Source: Elusimicrobiaceae bacterium (lineage in GTDB: Bacteria > Elusimicrobiota > Elusimicrobia > Elusimicrobiales > Elusimicrobiaceae). From it: 43,486 nucleotides of DNA. Positions 223-18,982 of the stretch are shown piece by piece. Position numbers and translations under genes: made by a program. The stretch lies in assembly GCA_016281355.1 (NCBI GenBank), contig JAEEIL010000001.1:1-43486 (forward strand). Direction: 5' to 3'. How positions within the stretch are numbered: position 1 is the stretch's first letter; every line of letters starts with the position of its first letter. Below the pieces are notes generated by a model. It had not been told where the DNA came from, ran no database searches, and saw only the letters and a program-made list of their open reading frames with translations.

Positions 223-639
223 TTAGTCGCCATAGCCAATAACGTCACAAGCATCATTGCTTCCACCATCACATTCTATACCACCATCGACAGCTCTTGT
301 AAGAGTATACGCACCGTATCTACCACGAGCATCTCTTGTAGCTACAAGAGTACCACTGTCACCAAATGTAATTGTATAGGACTGTGTTTTTATTTGACTA
401 CCAGTTGCACCGGCGAAATCTATGTCAAGTGCGGTAAAGCTAGTAGGCCAATTATCGTTTTGGAGCATAAATCTTTGTTGTGCACCACCGATGGTACCGA
501 ATAATGCTAATACTTCAGAAGCACGTGATCTTTCAACAGCTTTGAAGTACTGAGGTAAGGCAATTGATGCCAAAATGCCGATAATCAAGACGACTACCAA
601 CAATTCAATGAGGGTAAAACCCTTTTTATTCATTTTCAT
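223..639 (-). CDS. Type IV pilin / pseudopilin-like protein
   Basis: This 138-residue protein begins with a class III (prepilin) signal. A short basic leader ends in KKG, followed by FTLIELLVVVLIIGILA, with Phe at +1 and Glu at +5 after the predicted cleavage. The single hydrophobic helix spans about residues 8-28 and would be the assembly spine. A small globular domain follows, with two cysteines near the end (CDGGSNDAC) that could form the usual C-terminal disulfide loop. AAGGAG lies 6 nt before the chosen ATG, and a second in-frame ATG two codons later is less well placed. The gene stands alone with its own terminator. It could be a pilus subunit or a secretion pseudopilin; sequence alone does not decide. 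Confidence 0.92.
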   Translation of the reverse strand: MKMNKKGFTLIELLVVVLIIGILASIALPQYFKAVERSRASEVLALFGTIGGAQQRFMLQNDNWPTSFTALDIDFAGATGSQIKTQSYTITFGDSGTLVATRDARGRYGAYTLTRAVDGGIECDGGSNDACDVIGYGD

Positions 640-6577: not shown

Positions 6578-7498
6578 ATGCACCACTTATATTTATGGAT
6601 CTTATTTTGGGTTGTTGTTATAATAGCACTTGGGCTTGACCTTTTTATTTTAAATAAGCACCACGGGCATGTTTCAATTAAAGATGCTTCTGTAATGGTT
6701 GTGGCTTGGGTTACGCTTGCCCTTTGTTTCGGCGGTGTGATTTGGTTTGCATCAGGCATGCAAAGTGCACTCGAATTTTTTACAGGCTACGTTATAGAAT
6801 ACTCGCTTTCCATAGACAATATGTTTGTCTTCATTATGATTTTTACATACTTTGCAGTTCCCAAAGACCACCAGCCGAAAGTACTTTTATGGGGTATTTT
6901 GGGTGCAGTTGTGATGCGTTTTATTTTTATATTTATCGGCGTACAACTTATAACACGTTTTACTTTCATGATTTATGTTTTCGGTGCAATCTTGATTTAT
7001 ACTGCGATAAAAATGTTAGTCGGTAAAGATGAACAAATCGATCCGTCAAAAAACCCTGTTTTGAAGTTAATGAAAAAGATAATTCCCATAAATGAAAACA
7101 TAAGCAACGGTAACTTTTTTTGCCGGGAAAACGGCAAACTATTTGCTACAACTTTACTTGCAACGGTGGTTGTAATTGAAGCATCAGATTTGGTTTTTGC
7201 GGTTGATTCCATCCCCGCGGTTTTGGCAGTAACGCAAGATACTTTTATAGTGTACACATCCAATATTTTTGCGATTATCGGGCTTAGGTCACTTTACTTT
7301 TTGCTTGCAGGTATGGCAAACAAATTTGAGTATTTAAAATATGGTATTGCCGCTGTTTTGGCTTTTGTGGGTATAAAGATGTTGATATCGCATTATTACA
7401 AAATGCCGACGGTAATTTCCCTTCTTACCATAGTAATAATTCTAGGTATTGCGGTGTCGGCATCTGTAATAAAAAATAAGAAAGCAGTAAAAAACTAA
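6578..7498 (+). CDS. TerC/Alx-family integral membrane protein
   Basis: A 306-residue protein with about eight or nine hydrophobic helices. It carries the two hallmark acidic segments of the family, EYSLSIDNMFVF and EASDLVFAVDSIPA, each placing an Asp in the membrane. TerC/Alx proteins are linked to manganese or other metal handling, often coupled to secreted metalloenzymes. The length and order of motifs fit the Alx-type subgroup. No Shine-Dalgarno site precedes the ATG. The stop codon overlaps that of the convergent gene by four bases. Confidence 0.93.
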   Translation: MHHLYLWILFWVVVIIALGLDLFILNKHHGHVSIKDASVMVVAWVTLALCFGGVIWFASGMQSALEFFTGYVIEYSLSIDNMFVFIMIFTYFAVPKDHQPKVLLWGILGAVVMRFIFIFIGVQLITRFTFMIYVFGAILIYTAIKMLVGKDEQIDPSKNPVLKLMKKIIPINENISNGNFFCRENGKLFATTLLATVVVIEASDLVFAVDSIPAVLAVTQDTFIVYTSNIFAIIGLRSLYFLLAGMANKFEYLKYGIAAVLAFVGIKMLISHYYKMPTVISLLTIVIILGIAVSASVIKNKKAVKN

Positions 7499-9222
7499 TC
7501 TACGAACACAAATCCGGGTTGAACATCTAATTGAATATTATCTTCTATTGCTTGAAATAATTTCTCAGCTTTTTCAACACAATCCCCACGGGAAATACAA
7601 CCTCTAAATGTAGCAGAAGGGCTAAAATCAGACCACTGGACATCTCTGCGACAAAAAGGCTCCCCATGTAAGAACTGAAAGTTACTACTACCACCGTTTA
7701 CTTTTAAGGCATTTAAAGAGTCACAAGTATCTTTATGCTGATCCCTGCTATATACCATTTTACAAGATGAGGCATACTCTTCAGATATGTTATCCAATCT
7801 CTCACATTGTGATTTCATATCATCTACTATACTATTCCATTTATCTCTTAATTTAGCCGTTTTTTCCCCTAGGGTAACACCGAGAACGTTCTGTATCCTG
7901 CAAGATCCCGGGGCACCATTTTTCGCAACATTTTCTAAACCTTCAAAAGGTGTAACGCCAGCAGAAATGTCTGTTAATCTCTTTTTATGGCGTTCAAATG
8001 CTCGTCTGATTGATACAACCCTCTCCTCATAGCGTTGGCGGCCTTGCTCGCATTCCTTCATGTTTCGTTTTACTGTAAGAACAAGAGTTAACGGAGACAT
8101 TTCCGCCGGATCAAGCGTAGGAACTTTATCTTGTTTCTGATCTTTAGCAATTAAAACTTTATCTTGCGGTTCATCACCGTTAAAAGCAATTTCTGACAAA
8201 TGTTTTGAAGATTCTATATATTTCCTGCTGACAGAGGCATGGCTGTAAAAATAACTTGAAAACATATCTCTGCCTGTATTACCGAGAAAGTCAATCAAAT
8301 TTAAAGACGGTAAATCATCTTTGACATAATAACCCAGAGCACCGTCATAACCGCCAAAGTTACGCAAAGCGGCAAAGGTATCCGTAAAACTGCTATCCCC
8401 AATTAATTGTGAAATTACGCCTTCAGGTTTAACAACACTAAATTCCGGCCCGGAAACTATGGGCTTTACCATACGGCTGTTTTCCAAAGTTTGGACTTCC
8501 CCCTCATCTCCATCTGATTTATAAACTGATGAGGCAAAATCAGGCAACGGTTCGGGTTTTTGGGAAGCATTTACTTGCCCTTGTGCATTTTGACCGTCAC
8601 GGTCAAAACTGCCACGTACCTGACGGCGTTTGCTACCCATAACTTCATCCTGGTTTTGGGTTCTTGCTGTTGCTCTTTTATAACTGAAATCAGTAAAACC
8701 GTCATCTTCAAAATCAGTAAAAGAATCCCCTTTCGGCAAAGCACGTACGCCTTTTAAATCACCGTCAATTTCAGGAACGCTTACAGCGGTTTTATCCTGA
8801 TAAATACCGGCAATCTCTGCGGGGCGTTTATGGGTTCTTTCGTACTCATGATAATAAGTTACTTTTGCATTTATTAAACGATTAGCGCCTGCCTCTGCCG
8901 TATTAAAGCGGGATGTATAAAACACATCCGGTTCATATTCGGCTTGATATTTTTGGAAGGCACTTGCCATATTAGGTGTTTCTATGCCAAATGAATTTAA
9001 GGCTAAATCAATCAAAGTTAACTTCCTGGCGATATCTACTGATAAGCCATATCTGCCGGAGATATTTCTAAATAAAGGGATATAATAAACAGGTACCACT
9101 AAACTGATTAGCAAAACCAACAGGAACAAAAAGGACATCACCAAAAAAAATCTATTTTGGTTTTTTTGTTCTTTTTCCTGCTGTTGTGCAGATCTTACCT
9201 GATGTTTAATTTTTTGTGTCAT
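7495..9222 (-). CDS. Single-pass protein with Cys-rich C-terminal half, last gene of the six-gene unknown operon
   Basis: The 575-residue product has a charged N-terminus, one membrane helix (about 25-48) and a large, probably extracytoplasmic remainder. The middle (about 150-260) is polar and low in complexity. The C-terminal half holds about eight cysteines (for example MKEC, SSCKM, DTCDS, PFCRR, RGCIS, GDCVE), which suggests disulfides in an oxidising compartment. I recognise no family. AGAGG precedes the ATG, and the gene begins 27 bases after the coiled-coil gene at 9250-10005. The 3' end overlaps the TerC-family stop, with no intrinsic terminator visible between the convergent genes. 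Confidence 0.85.
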   Translation of the reverse strand: MTQKIKHQVRSAQQQEKEQKNQNRFFLVMSFLFLLVLLISLVVPVYYIPLFRNISGRYGLSVDIARKLTLIDLALNSFGIETPNMASAFQKYQAEYEPDVFYTSRFNTAEAGANRLINAKVTYYHEYERTHKRPAEIAGIYQDKTAVSVPEIDGDLKGVRALPKGDSFTDFEDDGFTDFSYKRATARTQNQDEVMGSKRRQVRGSFDRDGQNAQGQVNASQKPEPLPDFASSVYKSDGDEGEVQTLENSRMVKPIVSGPEFSVVKPEGVISQLIGDSSFTDTFAALRNFGGYDGALGYYVKDDLPSLNLIDFLGNTGRDMFSSYFYSHASVSRKYIESSKHLSEIAFNGDEPQDKVLIAKDQKQDKVPTLDPAEMSPLTLVLTVKRNMKECEQGRQRYEERVVSIRRAFERHKKRLTDISAGVTPFEGLENVAKNGAPGSCRIQNVLGVTLGEKTAKLRDKWNSIVDDMKSQCERLDNISEEYASSCKMVYSRDQHKDTCDSLNALKVNGGSSNFQFLHGEPFCRRDVQWSDFSPSATFRGCISRGDCVEKAEKLFQAIEDNIQLDVQPGFVFVD

Positions 9223-9249
9223 AAATCCTCTTTATTTTATGATAACAAA

Positions 9250-10005
9250 TTATTTCCTTAAAGTGTTTCTTTGTGTTTTTAAAGCCTCAACTTGTGCTTT
9301 AAGTTTGGCCGCTTTTGCTGCAGCTTCTTGCGCTGCTTTCATTTTAGCGGCACGTTCCTTTTCCGCTCTTTCTTGGGCAAGCCTGGCTTTATTTTCAGCA
9401 TCCCTTTGGGCTTGCTGTTGGGTATATTCGTTATTAAGGGATTGCCTTTCCCTCTCTTGGGCCAGACGCAATTGCTCTGCTTGCGCACGGGCTTTTTCCT
9501 TTTCTGCGGCTGCCGCTTCCGCACGGAGGCGTGCCTCTTTTGCCTGGACTTCCCTTAAGCGTGCATTATAAGCAGCAAGTTCAGAAGTATAATCAACACC
9601 TTGTGCCCCTGCCCTTAATTCCTGTTGTTTGGCAAGTTCTTGCTTCCTAAGTTGCTGGTTCAAAAGATCATTTTTTTGAACCGGCTTTGATATACCTTCA
9701 ATGCCAAGTTCTTTTAATCTCCTTTTCTTTTCAAGTTCCCTTTGCCTACGCGCTTCTTTAGCACGATATTCCTGCATCTGTGGGGAATTCACAACTGCAT
9801 CAACATTTGCCTGAACTTGCTTTTTGGTTTTTATATTATCTTTGACAATCAGAAAAATTGCAAATATTAAAAACAATGCCATTATAATGAACCAAGTAAT
9901 TTTAACAAGTTTGGCGAATTTGGAAAGTGCAGGCCTCCCTGCACTTTCCTGATTTGGAACTTGTTGAACTGTTTGCATTTTATTAAGGTTATTTAAATTC
10001 TGCAT
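9250..10005 (-). CDS. Single-pass membrane protein with long Ala/Glu/Arg coiled coil
   Basis: The 251-residue protein has a short N-terminal region and one helix (about 34-55). About 190 residues follow that are rich in Ala, Glu, Lys, Arg and Gln and almost certainly form long helices or a coiled coil (LREVQAKEARLRAEAAAAEK and similar). The look is that of TolA-like or periplasmic spacer proteins, but no conserved end domain is present. It contains no cysteine. The gene lies 14 bases after the downstream 550-residue paralogue gene and has GAGAGGG before the ATG. Function unknown. Low-complexity similarity to TolA should not be read as homology. Confidence 0.82.
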   Translation of the reverse strand: MQNLNNLNKMQTVQQVPNQESAGRPALSKFAKLVKITWFIIMALFLIFAIFLIVKDNIKTKKQVQANVDAVVNSPQMQEYRAKEARRQRELEKKRRLKELGIEGISKPVQKNDLLNQQLRKQELAKQQELRAGAQGVDYTSELAAYNARLREVQAKEARLRAEAAAAEKEKARAQAEQLRLAQERERQSLNNEYTQQQAQRDAENKARLAQERAEKERAAKMKAAQEAAAKAAKLKAQVEALKTQRNTLRK

Positions 10006-10019
10006 AGATTACCCTCTCA

Positions 10020-11672
10020 TCAAAAAGGCTTAAATCCTCCACCTAAAAATCCTCCTAAACCTTTCGTGGCAGCCTCTGAATTAATTAAAACTTCTCCTCC
10101 TGCAGCTGCACCACCGCCACCACCACTGCCTAATCCGCTTATCCAACTTGATATACTGGACCAAGGTAGCCAACATAAACCTAAAATTGCTGTTAAACCA
10201 CCGGCAATTAGACCAACTGTTGTAAGTTTTTCATCGATATCTATACCTTGATTAACCAAACCGAATCTTTCCTCATCACCCATCTGTTTTACCATGTCAA
10301 CTATACCGTTATCACCTGCCCACATCATACATGCTATGAAAACCAATGCTGCCGCGGATAATACACCTGCTGCAACCCATAACCACCATGCTGCCGGTGC
10401 CGCATAAGCTGCTTTTACTAAGAAATAAAGTGCTATAGCAGAAGCTAAAGTAACACCGATTAATATTCCTAGTTTTCTGTTAATATCATTTTGCAATGCT
10501 GCCATTTCTTCTTGCTGGCGTGCTGTTTCTTCCAATATTTGATTAACTTCATTTGCGGCAGCGGCTACCTCTGCAGCTACACCGTCCATGCTGGCACCAT
10601 CAAGCAAAGAATTTGCGACTTTACCTATGGTTGCCCCTTCCTCTATCGGGGAAACAATACCTTCCGGGTTACTACCGTCAAAGGCTGCTTCCGCTAAAGA
10701 TTTTTGACCTACGGCTTGCTGGCTGGCTAATGCTTTACCGGAATAAGCGGCCGCTAAATACATATCACCTGCTGCACCACGGCCTTTATCATTACCGCCT
10801 TTATAAGCCTGCCCCCTAAAACCTACATTAAAACCACCCATACCACCTGCACGGCCGAATTTAAAAGCTTCGCTGTTAGTATATTCAACACTGTTTTGCG
10901 GTAAAGCGCGGGTATTGCTATCACTGCCACCTATGCTACCACCGCTGAAAGAAGATGAACCTGCACCGCCACCGCTAGTACCACCGCCGTTTGCACCAAA
11001 AGATGAACCGCCGTTTGAAGATGCAAGTTTGTTTATTTGTGTTGAAGGCCTTACTTGATTTTTACCGCCTTTACCGTCTTTAGCACCTTTACCGGCTTTA
11101 CCACCTTTACCGGCTTTACCACCTTTACCGCCGGCGACATTACCTGCTGAGGCTGCAGCTGCTTGCATTTCCTGGAAAGCAGCCTCACCTTTAGCGGAAT
11201 TGTAAGCTAAAGCATCAGCTTCCGTCATACCTTCCACATCTTGTTCATAAGTAGAACCGAAAGGATTATAAGCATCACCATTGGCATAAGCACCGTTTGC
11301 ACCGGCACCATAAGCACCATCGGGGCCATAAACAAAACCTTCATCAGCGCGAACGCCTTCTGCATAAGCGCCATCTGAACTGAAAGCATCACCGGGTTCA
11401 GTTCCGTCAGATTTACCTTTTAAAAAGCGGGCACTGTAACCATCTTGCGTAGCTGCCATTTGCCTTTCAAGGTCACTGCGGCTAGCTGAATTACCACCCA
11501 TAAAATTATTATAAGCACTATCGCCAAAGCGGGATAAGGCCGCATCATTTGCGGCTTTTTGGTTATCGCCGCTGAAATTGTTTACAACACCTAAACCGAC
11601 CATAAGTGTTGCGCCAATCAACACGGCACCGGCCACTGTTTTAGTACCGAATTTAGATAACATGTTTTTCAT
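10020..11672 (-). CDS. Gly/Ala-rich four-helix membrane protein, paralogue 2 of the unknown operon
   Basis: The 550-residue product has an N-terminal helix (about 13-31) and a long soluble region. That region contains NGDAYNPFGST (131-141), a Gly-Lys low-complexity stretch (about 181-205) and a Gly/Ser linker. A conserved block with SNTRALPQ and EAFKFGRAGGMGGFNV (about 252-283) follows. A helical section leads to three more helices (about 401-419, 428-451, 485-502) and a Gly-rich end. The gene at 12092-13744 encodes a protein of exactly the same length, with the same motifs and helix positions. AGGAGG precedes the ATG. No known family recognised. Confidence 0.87.
   Translation of the reverse strand: MKNMLSKFGTKTVAGAVLIGATLMVGLGVVNNFSGDNQKAANDAALSRFGDSAYNNFMGGNSASRSDLERQMAATQDGYSARFLKGKSDGTEPGDAFSSDGAYAEGVRADEGFVYGPDGAYGAGANGAYANGDAYNPFGSTYEQDVEGMTEADALAYNSAKGEAAFQEMQAAAASAGNVAGGKGGKAGKGGKAGKGAKDGKGGKNQVRPSTQINKLASSNGGSSFGANGGGTSGGGAGSSSFSGGSIGGSDSNTRALPQNSVEYTNSEAFKFGRAGGMGGFNVGFRGQAYKGGNDKGRGAAGDMYLAAAYSGKALASQQAVGQKSLAEAAFDGSNPEGIVSPIEEGATIGKVANSLLDGASMDGVAAEVAAAANEVNQILEETARQQEEMAALQNDINRKLGILIGVTLASAIALYFLVKAAYAAPAAWWLWVAAGVLSAAALVFIACMMWAGDNGIVDMVKQMGDEERFGLVNQGIDIDEKLTTVGLIAGGLTAILGLCWLPWSSISSWISGLGSGGGGGAAAGGEVLINSEAATKGLGGFLGGGFKPF
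11063..11131. repeat. Short tandem repeat encoding the Gly-Lys stretch
   Basis: Near-identical units containing ACCTTTACCGGCTTTACC repeat here on the plus strand and encode GKGGKA-type repeats in the 10020-11672 gene. The array stays in frame. Such repeats can change length by slippage, so the linker may vary between strains. Confidence 0.7.
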
Positions 11673-11699
11673 AAGTCCTCCTGTTAATCTCTGTTAAAT

Positions 11700-12089
11700 T
11701 TATTTACCTTGATTTCTACCGGTTTGAGCCTGACGGTAAATTTCAAGCTTCTTTCTATAATCCATAGCTGCCTTAGTAGCCTTTTTAGAATCTTGCCTAG
11801 TTACACCGGATCCTTTAAATTGTGTTTCAAGATTCGCTAAATAAGCATCTTCTTCTTTTTGCCGTAAAGCACGGGCTGCTGCTAACTCTTTCTCTCTTAA
11901 AGCATTTCTTTGCTTTTCAATAGCTGCTATGCGTTTTGCTTTTGCACTTTCAATAAAATCACGGCTTGCTTTGGAAATGTGCCTATCTGCCGCTACTTGA
12001 AAAACTAAAATCAAAATCGTAAAAACACATAGTGCTATTGCAAAATAATCAGGCCCTTTTTCTTTCTTTAAGATTATATTATCATTCAT
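11700..12089 (-). CDS. Small single-pass protein with charged helical tail
   Basis: The 129-residue product has one membrane helix (about 14-34). It is followed by about 90 residues rich in Ala, Lys, Arg and Glu with heptad-like spacing (RIAAIEKQRNALREKELAAA). The design matches the 251-residue coiled-coil protein of the same operon on a smaller scale, so the two may be distant paralogues or partners. It starts two bases after the stop of the first 550-residue gene, with GAGGA upstream, so translation is likely coupled. No family recognised. Confidence 0.8.
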   Translation of the reverse strand: MNDNIILKKEKGPDYFAIALCVFTILILVFQVAADRHISKASRDFIESAKAKRIAAIEKQRNALREKELAAARALRQKEEDAYLANLETQFKGSGVTRQDSKKATKAAMDYRKKLEIYRQAQTGRNQGK

Positions 12090-12091
12090 AA

Positions 12092-13744
12092 TTATTTTTC
12101 CTCTTTTTCTTTAGCTGCTTTTCTATTTTTGCTTGAATTAATAGTGCCTGAAACAGCTTGCTTCATACGGCTAGCAGCCGCCGTAGTAGCAGTTCCCTGT
12201 AGCATTTTCACAAAACCGCTTGTAGCTGTTTTTGCTGCTTTCATACCTTGCCACCAAGCTATACCCAAAGCCGCGGGATATACACCACACATTAAGGTAT
12301 AGTAAATCCAATTTTGATTTGACATATTGGCTTTCTTTCGCAAATCCGCAAGTTCTGAAATGGTTTTGTAAATATTCATACCGTCGCCGTCATAATCAGC
12401 GCCAAAAATCGCAAATAAAGCCGCAGCCGTTATAAGGCCTGCAATAACATACTTAACCCAATGGTTAATTTTCATTGCTGCAGCAATTAAGAAACATGCT
12501 GCAACGGTAATTATACCGGCATTGATCATGTGATTCCAAACATTTCTTTGCAATCTGGCTTGTTTTTGCGCATCAGTTTCAACGGTTGTTTCAATTTTAT
12601 CTAAACCTAAATTTTTCTTGGTACGTTTAAAACCAAGTTTGTTACCGCTGATATCAATTGGGACATCACTGTTAAGAGTCATCCCCTCATCTATTTCTAC
12701 ACCACCGTCAAAGGCATTGGCTGCTTCCTGTGCACCTTGTGCAAGAGATTTTTCACCGTTTGTTTGTAAAGTAGCAACTGCTTTACTGGAAAGGGTATAA
12801 GCAGCTTGTAATTCTGATTTTGCACTGCCCCTGCCACCTTTTGTACCGTCAACTTCTCCACCACCTTTGGCGACATTAAAACCACCTTCATTACCGGCAC
12901 GGCCAAACCTAAAAGCATCAGCATTTGTTTGACCTGCATTTCCTTGCGGTATTGCACGGGTATTGCTATCTCTACCGCCTTTAGGGTTACCCCCCACCGG
13001 TACTGTACCAGTACCAATACCACCTGTTACTGAATTACCGCCTGCAACACCGCCACCTGCTACAGTGCCACCTTTTGCAGTTCCGAGTTTTGAACCGCCT
13101 TGTGAAGCCGTAAGTTTACCGACTTGCGTTGCTTGCCTGGATGATTTAGCACCTTTACCTTTTGAGCCGCTTGTTGCTGCCGCAGTAGCTTGTTGTGCTG
13201 CTTGAAATTGCCTTGCACCGGGGGCGGAACGTTGGCCCGGCTCTATCATTCCGCTTACGCCTTCTTCAAATGTAGAACCGAAAGGATCATAAACATCACC
13301 GTTACTGTAAGCACTGATTTCATTACCTTCGGCGTCATAAGAGGCGCCTTCTACGCCGGATCTTTGGGAATCAAGATAAGCGCGTGCCGCTTCAAAATTA
13401 GCCTGTTCTCTATCGGCATTGCTTCTTATTGTTCTTGAATCAACAAAACCATTTTGGGTACGGATTACACCCTTATTATTTTGAACTGCAGCGGGTAAAG
13501 TATCGTGGGTTTGTAAATCTAATCTCTCACCGTCAAAAGGATTAGTGTTTAAATTTAAACCTTCGCCGGTATAAATTGCACGACGTTCAGGGTTATAAGC
13601 AGGGGAATTATTATAAGCAGTATAAGTGTTATACCCAATAACTGCCGCAAAAACACCAAGGCCCAAACCCGTCATGACATTGGGTGATATTTTACCTTTG
13701 TTATTTAACAGAATATTTTTAAAAACTTTAATAATATTTTTCAT
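12092..13744 (-). CDS. Gly-rich four-helix membrane protein, paralogue 1 of the unknown operon
   Basis: The 550-residue product has an N-terminal helix (about 23-41) and an extracytoplasmic-type region with NGDVYDPFGSTFE (148-160). QVGKLTASQGGSKLG (207-221), a Gly linker, and SNTRAIPQ plus DAFRFGRAGNEGGFNV (259-291) follow. Three helices (about 407-424, 429-448, 479-497) precede a basic C-terminal tail that ends KAAKEKEEK, so N- and C-termini are both probably cytoplasmic. The motifs and layout match the 10020-11672 protein. GAGGAG precedes the ATG. No known domain was recognised. Confidence 0.87.
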   Translation of the reverse strand: MKNIIKVFKNILLNNKGKISPNVMTGLGLGVFAAVIGYNTYTAYNNSPAYNPERRAIYTGEGLNLNTNPFDGERLDLQTHDTLPAAVQNNKGVIRTQNGFVDSRTIRSNADREQANFEAARAYLDSQRSGVEGASYDAEGNEISAYSNGDVYDPFGSTFEEGVSGMIEPGQRSAPGARQFQAAQQATAAATSGSKGKGAKSSRQATQVGKLTASQGGSKLGTAKGGTVAGGGVAGGNSVTGGIGTGTVPVGGNPKGGRDSNTRAIPQGNAGQTNADAFRFGRAGNEGGFNVAKGGGEVDGTKGGRGSAKSELQAAYTLSSKAVATLQTNGEKSLAQGAQEAANAFDGGVEIDEGMTLNSDVPIDISGNKLGFKRTKKNLGLDKIETTVETDAQKQARLQRNVWNHMINAGIITVAACFLIAAAMKINHWVKYVIAGLITAAALFAIFGADYDGDGMNIYKTISELADLRKKANMSNQNWIYYTLMCGVYPAALGIAWWQGMKAAKTATSGFVKMLQGTATTAAASRMKQAVSGTINSSKNRKAAKEKEEK

Positions 13745-13760
13745 AAAATGCTCCTCATTA

Positions 13761-14957
13761 TTAACAACCTTTAACGCACTGCCATTCGCCTTCTTTGCCC
13801 ATCAACCAAGTTTTCTCACCGTCTTTAAAAACACCATTGCTAACAGAATCACCTTTCCAACCAGTCCAACAACCGCTTGTTACACAGTTAATGCCTGCAT
13901 CCAAAACTTTGTTAAATAAATTCATTCCAACACAACTCCAAACTAGATGGCCTTTGTTATCTAAACAGTTCTCATTTATATTATATTCATTCTCTTTCTT
14001 TTCTTTTTCCTTTTTCTCAGCTTCCTGTTTATTAACTTCATCACCGATGGAACGGGCTAAATCATTTTGTAGTTCTGAACTTACACCTAATGGTTCTTCA
14101 AGGCCAAGGTCTTGTTCGTCTTTCTCTAATCCTTCAGGTGTGACACCGTCTTGGAAGGCATTCATAGCCCCTACAGCGGCACTTTCTGCACTATCGGCAT
14201 TTGCACCTTTCATAGATTCCACACCGGCCCTATACAAATCTGCACTTCTACCTTTGACAAAAGCCATATCTTGTGCGGTTACATTATTAGTTACAGGAGT
14301 AGAATTAACTTGCCCGTTTTTATTACCACCTTCATTACGCCAAATTGAACCGGTAACGCTTGAACTACCGCCACCTGAACTAAAACCACCGCCCCTGCTG
14401 GCCAAACTGCCCGGAGTGGTTTTTTCATTTTGTTTACGTATAGACGCCTGTTTACCTGTAGTTTTATTATCTCTTTTATTTTTAATTCTTTTTGCTTCTT
14501 TATCAAAATCTTCTTTTGCTTGGCGTTTCCTTTGTATGCGGGATTCCCTGATACTTTGGGCTTCTTCGGCTTTTTCTTTTTCTTTGATTATTTCAGCATA
14601 CTCCGGATCCGGTGGAGGTGGAACACCTTCCGCTTTATCTTTGGCTTGGCGTTCCTCTTTATCTTCGGAAGAAAATAAAGAACCAAGGAGATCTGCATTA
14701 GATATGTTTGCATATTCCGGGTTATTACGTAAGAAATTGTCGGCATCGGCATCTGTACCGAACGGCAAGGCTGCAAGGTCTTGCTGCCTTTGCGAAGAAA
14801 ACTTACTATAATCAGGTTTATTTTCACCACCCATATTTGGTATAACGCTGATTAAAGTTAAAACCATAACCAACCCGCAACCAACCCAAGTATAGATTTG
14901 TTTTCTGTTATCACTTTGGTCTCTTCTTTGACCGCTACTTCTCATTATTATCGCCAT
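13761..14957 (-). CDS. First gene of the unknown operon: single-pass protein with Cys-rich end
   Basis: The 398-residue product has one N-terminal helix (about 22-40) and a charged helical section (about 97-165). A Gly/Ser block (LASRGGGFSSGGGSSS, about 185-200) is followed by DMAFVKGRSADLYRAG (230-245) and MNAFQDGVTPEG (265-276). These resemble the EAFKFGRAG and NAFDGG blocks of the two 550-residue proteins, so it is probably a divergent third paralogue. It lacks their C-terminal helices. Instead it ends in a domain with six cysteines (C331, C342, C358, C363, C394, C398). AAGGG lies 7 bases before the ATG. It is the promoter-proximal gene. Function unknown. Confidence 0.85.
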   Translation of the reverse strand: MAIIMRSSGQRRDQSDNRKQIYTWVGCGLVMVLTLISVIPNMGGENKPDYSKFSSQRQQDLAALPFGTDADADNFLRNNPEYANISNADLLGSLFSSEDKEERQAKDKAEGVPPPPDPEYAEIIKEKEKAEEAQSIRESRIQRKRQAKEDFDKEAKRIKNKRDNKTTGKQASIRKQNEKTTPGSLASRGGGFSSGGGSSSVTGSIWRNEGGNKNGQVNSTPVTNNVTAQDMAFVKGRSADLYRAGVESMKGANADSAESAAVGAMNAFQDGVTPEGLEKDEQDLGLEEPLGVSSELQNDLARSIGDEVNKQEAEKKEKEKKENEYNINENCLDNKGHLVWSCVGMNLFNKVLDAGINCVTSGCWTGWKGDSVSNGVFKDGEKTWLMGKEGEWQCVKGC

Positions 14958-15079: not shown

Positions 15080-15108
15080 AGTATAGTGGTTTTTTTACAA
15101 TTTGTCAA
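15080..15108 (-). promoter_or_regulatory. Consensus sigma-70 promoter of the six-gene operon
   Basis: TTGACA and TATACT on the minus strand are separated by exactly 17 bases: a perfect -35 and a near-perfect -10. An inverted repeat (GGGGT at 15109-15113, ACCCC at 15126-15130) abuts the -35 and could be an operator. It is the strongest promoter in the window by inspection. Confidence 0.85.
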
Positions 15109-17794: not shown

Positions 17795-18982
17795 ATGGCA
17801 AAGGAGAAATTCTCAAGAAGCAAACCACACGTTAACGTTGGTACAATCGGCCACGTTGACCACGGTAAGACGACCTTAACCGCAGCGATGACGAAAGTCT
17901 TAGCAAGCGAAGGTAAAAGTAAAGAAATGGCATACAGCGATATTGCAAAAGGCGGTGTAGTAAGAGACGCAAGCAAAATCGTAACAGTAGCCGTATCACA
18001 CGTTGAATACGAATCAGACAACAGGCACTATGCCCACATTGACTGTCCGGGCCACGCTGACTACATTAAAAACATGATCACCGGTGCCGCACAAATGGAC
18101 GGTGCAATCTTGGTAGTATCAGCAGTAGACGGTGCAATGCCACAAACCAAAGAACACGTATTGTTAGCAAAACAAGTTAACGTACCGAAGTTAGTCGTAT
18201 TCTTAAACAAAGTAGATTTAGTAGAAGACAAAGACATGTTGGACTTAGTTGAAGAAGAAGTCCGCGATTTACTCGTAAAATATGGCTTTGATAAAGAAAC
18301 CCCGATCATCCGCGGTAGTGCATTAAAAGCAATTGAAGGTGATACAAGCGAACTTGGTATACCTTCCATTAAGAAATTGCTTAATGCATTAGATACCTGG
18401 ATCCCTGAACCGAAACGCGAAACCGATAAACCTTTCTTGATGGCAGTAGAAGACGTATTCTCCATCACAGGTCGCGGTACAGTAGCAACCGGTAGAATTG
18501 AAAGAGGTAAGGTAAAAGTCGGTGATCCTTTGGAAATCATCGGTTTTAGAGACACATTAAATACCGTTGCAACAGGTATTGAAATGTTCCGCAAATTATT
18601 GGATGAAGGTTTAGCAGGCGATAACGTAGGTATCTTGCTCCGCGGTATTGATAAGAATCAAGTTGAACGCGGTCAAGTACTTGCAGCCCCCAAAACCATC
18701 ACCCCGCATAAGAAATTCACTGGCCAAGTTTATATCTTGAAGAAAGATGAAGGTGGCCGCCATACACCTTTAACACCGGGTTATAAACCGCAGTTCTACT
18801 TCAGAACAACCGATGTAACCGGTGAATTACAATTCAAAGGTGACATGATTATGCCGGGCGACAATGCCGAAATCGAAGTAACGTTGATTACCCCGATTGC
18901 AATGGAAGAAGGTGTAAGATTTGCAATCCGCGAAGGTGGTCATACAGTAGGTGCAGGTGTTGTTACAAAAATTATTGAGTAA
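17795..18982 (+). CDS. tuf: Translation elongation factor Tu
   Basis: The 395-residue GTPase delivers aminoacyl-tRNA to the ribosome. It shows the P-loop GHVDHGKT (residues 19-26), the switch [10 protein letters not shown], the guanine-recognition NKVD, and the full three-domain length. The start is the ATG of [20 protein letters not shown], with AGGAG 9 bases upstream. A longer open frame into the tRNA-Thr gene is not coding. A strong terminator follows the stop. The protein is highly conserved and would be a good phylogenetic marker for this contig. Confidence 0.99.

What the first reader, a model, noticed from the sequence alone, without database searches (positions are those of the whole stretch)
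7495..14957. Six-gene operon of unrecognised envelope proteins: candidate undescribed system
Six minus-strand genes with gaps of 2-27 bases form one transcript. Every product begins with a short charged tail and one membrane helix. Two are single-pass coiled-coil proteins, two are 550-residue Gly-rich four-helix proteins, and two are single-pass proteins with Cys-rich outer parts. None matches a family I know. Cysteines are concentrated in the predicted outer regions of the first and last products, while the coiled-coil proteins have none there. The pattern fits a multi-part machine or scaffold in the inner membrane and periplasm. Basis: architecture is seen; assembly into a complex is inference.
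Basis: partly seen in the sequence, partly recalled or inferred. Interest (0 to 1): 0.88.

Follow-up and report, generated by a model that had tools for sequence, protein, structure and literature searches.

The report
Elusimicrobia Tad-pilus accessory membrane module
Six unrecognised membrane-protein genes in a gut Elusimicrobia genome are one end of a gene set, conserved across the class, that normally sits directly behind the genes for a Tad adhesion pilus; it is probably an undescribed add-on to that pilus, though nobody has shown what it does.

Summary
In detail: six minus-strand genes (A-F, 7495-14957), gaps 2-27 nt, each with a Shine-Dalgarno-like site, all membrane-anchored, no curated-family match. 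They are not six unrelated proteins: B and D are paralogues (35%), C and E are related (hhalign 96%), D and F share a ~90-residue element (96%), and A shares it weakly. So the order is A-[B-C]-[D-E]-F. The window shows part of a larger set. In 38 of 42 Elusimicrobiaceae loci where it could be checked, the order is TadG-TadE2-A-D-(small coil)-D-F-G-TPR, directly behind a Tad (Flp) pilus locus. G is a ~1250-aa, single-anchor, Cys-rich protein. TadG-TadE2 upstream of the module also occurs in another order of the class (f14). F is found in 141 of 341 Elusimicrobiota genomes and keeps five invariant cysteines across families. The window's species has its Tad locus and G on other contigs; synteny suggests A-F lies ~18 kb behind the Tad locus and that the window contig is misjoined at tuf. 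D, E, F and G lack a prepilin motif. Best reading: a class-specific, inner-membrane-anchored periplasmic accessory module of the Tad pilus. Association is well supported; mechanism is inferred.

The parts
13761..14957 (-). Gene A, 398 aa: charged tail, one N-terminal helix, Gly/Ser-rich middle, six C-terminal cysteines
   Evidence: profile finds it in 103 of 341 phylum genomes
12092..13744 (-). Gene B, 550 aa Gly-rich polytopic protein, paralogue of D
   Evidence: 35% identity, E 2.9e-31
11700..12089 (-). Gene C, 129 aa single-anchor coiled coil, related to E
   Evidence: hhalign 96%
10020..11672 (-). Gene D, 550 aa, 18% Gly, N-terminal helix plus three C-terminal helices
   Evidence: C-terminal helices 362-499 mostly at pLDDT above 85
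9250..10005 (-). Gene E, 251 aa single-anchor coiled coil, no cysteine
   Evidence: TolA model 30.2 bits, below its cut-off of 59.45
7495..9222 (-). Gene F, 575 aa, single anchor, Cys-rich C-terminal helical domain
10602..10880 (-). Shared element in D (residues about 265-357; FGR.G.MGG ... YS ... AAFDG)
   Evidence: D-F score 78 against a maximum of 16.7 in 40 column shuffles
8110..8397 (-). Shared element in F (residues about 276-371)
14100..14240 (-). Short form of the shared element in A (residues about 240-286)
   Evidence: D-A score 45 against a shuffle maximum of 17; hhalign probability only 42-67%
7696..8094 (-). F Cys-rich helical domain (residues 377-509); C391, C441, C473, C487, C500 invariant in the f1 and f2 sequences aligned
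15080..15108 (-). Promoter-like site for the operon (consensus match only)

Best explanation
A-F (with G and probably a TPR protein encoded elsewhere) is a class-specific accessory module of the Tad (Flp) pilus. SHOWN: a Tad locus with its main components exists in the same genome, and in most relatives and in another order of the class the module follows TadG-TadE2 in the order A-D...-F-G; proteins D, E, F and G lack the prepilin motif that the TadE and Flp proteins of the same locus have. INFERRED: the proteins stay anchored in the inner membrane by their N-terminal helix and project into the periplasm; duplicated Gly-rich D subunits and small coiled coils form a scaffold around the shared element; A, F and G contribute disulfide-stabilised parts, and G may reach toward peptidoglycan (weak OmpA-like signal). 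The scaffold would hold, guide or load the TadG/TadE2-tipped pilus. Likelihoods: Tad-linked function about 0.8; inner-membrane-anchored periplasmic scaffold, given that, about 0.6; exact role open.
For: Tad components in the linked locus by Pfam: class III signal pilin, TadE 2.7e-9, RcpC 1.8e-15, secretin 4e-41, T2SSE 5e-64, T2SSF 4.5e-20 and 1.4e-14. Own-genome Tad locus on C4. Linkage: TadE2 before A in 38 of 42 checkable loci, A before D 45 of 49, D before F 47 of 47 (orders). Linkage also in g5, g6 and f14. F in 141 of 341 phylum genomes, 136 of which also have TadZA (Fisher p 1.6e-11). Prepilin motif in 51/51 TadE2, 5/5 TadE1, 2/2 Flp but 0/128 D, 0/81 F, 0/74 G, 0/30 E, 2/81 A. Invariant cysteines in F. 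The Tad locus itself encodes a thioredoxin-like protein.
Against: In family f2 the module sits on contigs other than the Tad ATPase gene, and in the E. minutum-like genome G079 it is split, so linkage is not obligatory. Five F-positive genomes lack a TadZA hit (incomplete assemblies are possible). TadZA is almost universal in the class, so co-occurrence across the phylum is confounded by descent. TadG also lacks the prepilin glutamate (0/53), so absence of the motif does not by itself exclude a pilin-like role for the single-anchor proteins. No inter-protein contact was tested. The OmpA signal in G is below the curated cut-off.
Confidence: 0.6

Rival explanations
1. The module is cargo or tip material: A, F and G are exported surface proteins carried or displayed by the Tad pilus and vary with the surface they bind.
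For: Genes lie immediately downstream of TadG-TadE2, the minor-pilin position. Module proteins diverge far faster than the Tad core: TadZA is 84% identical to G099 while A, D and F are about 24-40%. Cys-rich exported domains. Custom Tad tips are known in Myxococcus (PMC12075869).
Against: No prepilin cleavage motif in D, E, F or G. D has three further C-terminal membrane helices, so it must stay in the membrane. The order and anchors are kept across the class.
Confidence: 0.2
2. An independent envelope complex (for example a peptidoglycan-anchored force or integrity system) whose genes merely sit beside Tad genes in some lineages.
For: Stand-alone operon in f2; split in G079. Single-anchor coiled-coil E scores to TolA at 2.6e-7 though below the cut-off. 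G has an N-terminal anchor and a weak OmpA-like stretch.
Against: Linkage and gene order are kept in two orders of the class and in dozens of species. No obvious ExbB/TolQ/MotA-like partner was seen beside it in the regions read. TolA similarity fits low-complexity coiled coil.
Confidence: 0.15
3. No shared function: unrelated hydrophobic ORFs kept together by chance or by hitch-hiking with the Tad locus.
For: Large parts of D and F are low-complexity and low-confidence in the models.
Against: Conservation over families with invariant cysteines, order kept, paralogous subunits.
Confidence: 0.03

Closest known systems
Tad (tight adherence, Flp, type IVc) pilus system
   Same: The module lies in or near Tad loci with Flp pilin, TadE, RcpC, RcpA, fused TadZ-TadA, TadB, TadC, TPR, TadG-like and TadE2. 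Tad systems in Elusimicrobia were already reported (PMC6668835).
   Different: A-G correspond to no Tad component by sequence or family model, and D, E, F and G lack the prepilin motif.
Myxococcus Kil system (Tad-like, with lineage-specific parts and interchangeable tips; PMC8460266, PMC12075869)
   Same: A Tad-type machine with additional clade-specific parts near the TadE/F/G-type minor pilin genes.
   Different: The published Kil tip proteins have a pilin fold and a predicted prepilin cleavage site; D, E, F and G do not have the motif. No sequence comparison with Kil proteins was made here.
TolA (TIGR02794)
   Same: E is a single-anchor, Lys/Ala/Gln/Glu-rich coiled coil (30.2 bits).
   Different: Below the cut-off of 59.45 bits; the match stops at profile position 241 of 362, so the C-terminal part of TolA is not matched.
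OmpA-like peptidoglycan-binding proteins (PF00691)
   Same: G has an N-terminal anchor and a weak C-terminal OmpA match in 2 of 8 members.
   Different: Below the gathering score in every case whose score was shown (18.0 against 27.2 bits at best).

Membership tests
Tad pilus locus (genome level) | TadA-type ATPase, TadB/TadC, RcpA secretin, RcpC, TadE and Flp pilin encoded together | tested here: met
   Window genome C4; domain assignments on the orthologous locus L087. A TadV-type prepilin peptidase was not looked for.
Tad minor pilin (TadE/F type) for A-F and G | Class III / prepilin cleavage motif with Glu at +5 before the helix | tested here: not met
   0/128 D, 0/81 F, 0/74 G, 0/30 E, 0/3 C, 2/81 A, against 51/51 TadE2. 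TadG-like proteins also fail this test (0/53).
Known Tad core component for A-F and G | Sequence or profile match to a described component | tested here: not met
   no match to a Tad family, none at a curated cut-off for the window's proteins
TolA (for E) | TIGR02794 score above the curated cut-off | tested here: not met
   30.2 against 59.45 bits
OmpA-like peptidoglycan-binding protein (for G) | PF00691 above the gathering score | tested here: inconclusive
   18.0 bits at best against 27.2
Accessory module of Tad | Genetic linkage to Tad genes in distant lineages | tested here: met
   (f1 and f14); not linked in the f2 genomes read
Accessory module of Tad | Physical interaction with, or requirement for, the pilus | not testable with these tools
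   Needs experiment or multi-chain prediction

The most novel reading that the evidence does not exclude
An undescribed envelope-spanning apparatus of the class Elusimicrobia, built from duplicated subunits that share one small element (A, D, F and possibly G), which couples to the Tad pilus and changes what that pilus does, for example anchoring it to peptidoglycan or turning it into a secretion or contact device.
Probability: 0.25. Interest if true: 0.8.

Novelty: new variant of a known kind. Interest (0 to 1): 0.6.

Why it matters
Tad pili drive adhesion, biofilm formation and, in some bacteria, contact killing. A whole class of bacteria, including many gut symbionts, carries a Tad locus extended by at least four or five protein families with no known relative, kept in order over great divergence. 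If they work with the pilus, the Tad machine has an unknown layer, and the gene set gives a concrete list of proteins to delete, tag and image. It also offers a placement for roughly six to eight hypothetical proteins per genome in a poorly known phylum.

Tried and rejected
(1) Single-sequence searches suggested that the module is genus-only (D in 7 of 341 genomes); profiles overturned this. (2) Low-scoring family hits (TAF4, TMEM156, GldL_N, Anthrone_oxy, SDF and others) were rejected as composition or membrane-helix matches: weak and inconsistent between family members. (3) TolA for E: below cut-off. (4) PDB sequence searches with four profiles (best E 0.053, coiled coils and unrelated chains) and Foldseek on the models of F and D (best E 0.24 and 1.2) gave nothing credible; both models average pLDDT below 60. 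(5) The idea that D, E, F and G are ordinary minor pilins: motif test failed. (6) The shared element between D or F and G: hhalign 0.4-5%, not claimed; A-G is suggestive only (49%). (7) Literature: Tad in Elusimicrobia is mentioned (PMC6668835); no description of this module was found in the open-access library, where subscription papers are missing.

Full report
OBSERVATION. The six genes are present as described. All are on the minus strand with gaps of 16, 2, 27, 14 and 27 nt and a ribosome site before each. No model in Pfam or NCBIfam reaches its cut-off and PHROGs gives nothing convincing; Pfam scans of 43 F and 62 D relatives found no family matched by more than two members.

INTERNAL RELATIONSHIPS. 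B and D are paralogues (35% identity, E 2.9e-31). C and E are related by profile (96%, E 2.5e-9). D and F share about 90 residues containing FGR.G.MGG ... YS ... AAFDG (95.9%). In a control with 40 column shuffles the D-F score was 78 against a maximum of 16.7; D-A 45 against 17; F-A 36 against 21; A-G 45 against 24. D-F is firm; the A links are suggestive. The operon therefore reads A-[B-C]-[D-E]-F, and sister species G086 has only A-D-E-F.

THE SET IS LARGER AND TIED TO A TAD PILUS. In other species of the genus the same genes lie behind a Tad locus: Flp-type pilin, TadE, RcpC, secretin, fused TadZ-TadA, TadB, TadC, TPR protein, HAMP protein, small membrane protein, thioredoxin-like protein, sensor kinase, kinase/receiver, LuxR regulator, TadG-like, TadE2, A', A, D, E, F, G, TPR. 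G is about 1150-1390 aa with one anchor and about 24-34 cysteines. The window's genome has the Tad locus on contig C4 with the same order up to TadE2, including two Flp-type pilins, and G on contig C38.

BREADTH. The conserved start of G was scanned against 84,980 bacterial and archaeal species: 69 loci, all in records titled Elusimicrobia/Elusimicrobiales/Elusimicrobiaceae or 'uncultured bacterium'. Gene orders in these give TadG-TadE2 in 38 of 38 checkable loci, TadE2-A in 38 of 42, A-D in 45 of 49, D-F in 47 of 47, F-G in 48 of 61, G-TPR in 41 of 42. These loci were found through G, so loci without G are under-represented. By profile, A occurs in 103 and F in 141 of 341 Elusimicrobiota genomes: nearly all of families f1 and f2, and a few in f14 and f15 of the same class. 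Five cysteines of F (391, 441, 473, 487, 500) are invariant across the f1 and f2 sequences aligned. In f2 the order A-D-D-F-G is kept as a stand-alone operon. In g5 (G082) and in f14, another order (G184, G186, G189), TadG-TadE2 again lies upstream of the D-F-G genes on the same strand. The Tad-linked arrangement therefore occurs on both sides of an old split and is likely ancestral; separation in f2, g3 and the window's clade is likely derived (inference). Of 141 F-positive genomes 136 have TadZA, but TadZA is so common in the class that this is weak evidence.

WHERE THE OPERON LIES IN THIS GENOME. The genome seems to have two tuf genes. Contig C4 ends inside one and C19 inside one, while the window runs straight through one. 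In G086 and G096, fusA-tuf is followed by the ferritin and sigma-factor genes that the window has after tuf. In G086 the tuf beside MATE and A-F is followed by the genes at the end of C4. The simplest reading is that the window contig crosses from one tuf copy to the other at 17795-18982, by assembly error or real recombination. If the G086 order holds here, A-F lies about 18 kb downstream of TadE2 in the same orientation.

HOW IT MAY WORK. D, E, F and G lack the prepilin motif that TadE and Flp of the same loci have, and D has further membrane helices, so D at least stays in the inner membrane. The AlphaFold2 model of F (mean pLDDT 59) is confident for the N-terminal helical part and for a C-terminal helical domain carrying the invariant cysteines. 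That of D (57) is confident only for a long helix entering a C-terminal membrane bundle. Neither matches a solved fold, and four profiles match no solved sequence credibly. I infer an inner-membrane-anchored periplasmic assembly that serves the Tad pilus. Other Tad pili are reported to have a periplasmic RcpC conduit (PMC12307814) and TadE/F/G-type tips (PMC12075869); RcpC and TadG/TadE2 are present here as well, so A-G would be an additional layer. Rapid divergence of the module (about 24-40% against 84% for TadZA between G000 and G099) leaves room for the rival that parts of it are exposed.

KNOWN OR NEW. Tad systems in Elusimicrobia have been noted (PMC6668835). I found no description of this module. 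It is best called a new variant of a known kind: a Tad locus with a class-specific module whose protein families are undescribed.

Noticed in passing
window 17795-18982: Probable assembly misjoin (or recombination) at tuf: upstream half belongs with contig C4 (Tad locus side), downstream half with contig C19 (rpoB-rpoC-fusA side), judged from G086 and G096.
   Followed up: yes
L262:1626-3272 (G079): A pilin-like gene of 548 aa (GFTLIE-type start) with 50 cysteines in an E. minutum-like genome.
   Followed up: no
window 223-639; also L013, L015, L150, L152, L273, L288: Many isolated single type IV pilin-like genes (GFTLIELLVVVLIIGILA...) scattered between housekeeping genes.
   Followed up: no
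L158:8140-9387 and equivalents in L157, L159, L161, L162: In family f2 a conserved single-anchor protein of about 410 aa precedes A and may be a further module member.
   Followed up: partly
L117:11296-12231: Thioredoxin/DsbA-like gene inside the Tad locus; in relative L017 the motif reads CPYG rather than CxxC.
   Followed up: no
L149:6380-13972 (G079): A 2530-aa predicted membrane protein with about eleven hydrophobic helices, about 4.5 kb upstream of gene A in the E. minutum-like genome.
   Followed up: no
L071:5866-8402 and equivalents: Gene A is duplicated in tandem (A' and A) in several species of the genus, while the window's clade instead carries two D-E pairs.
   Followed up: partly
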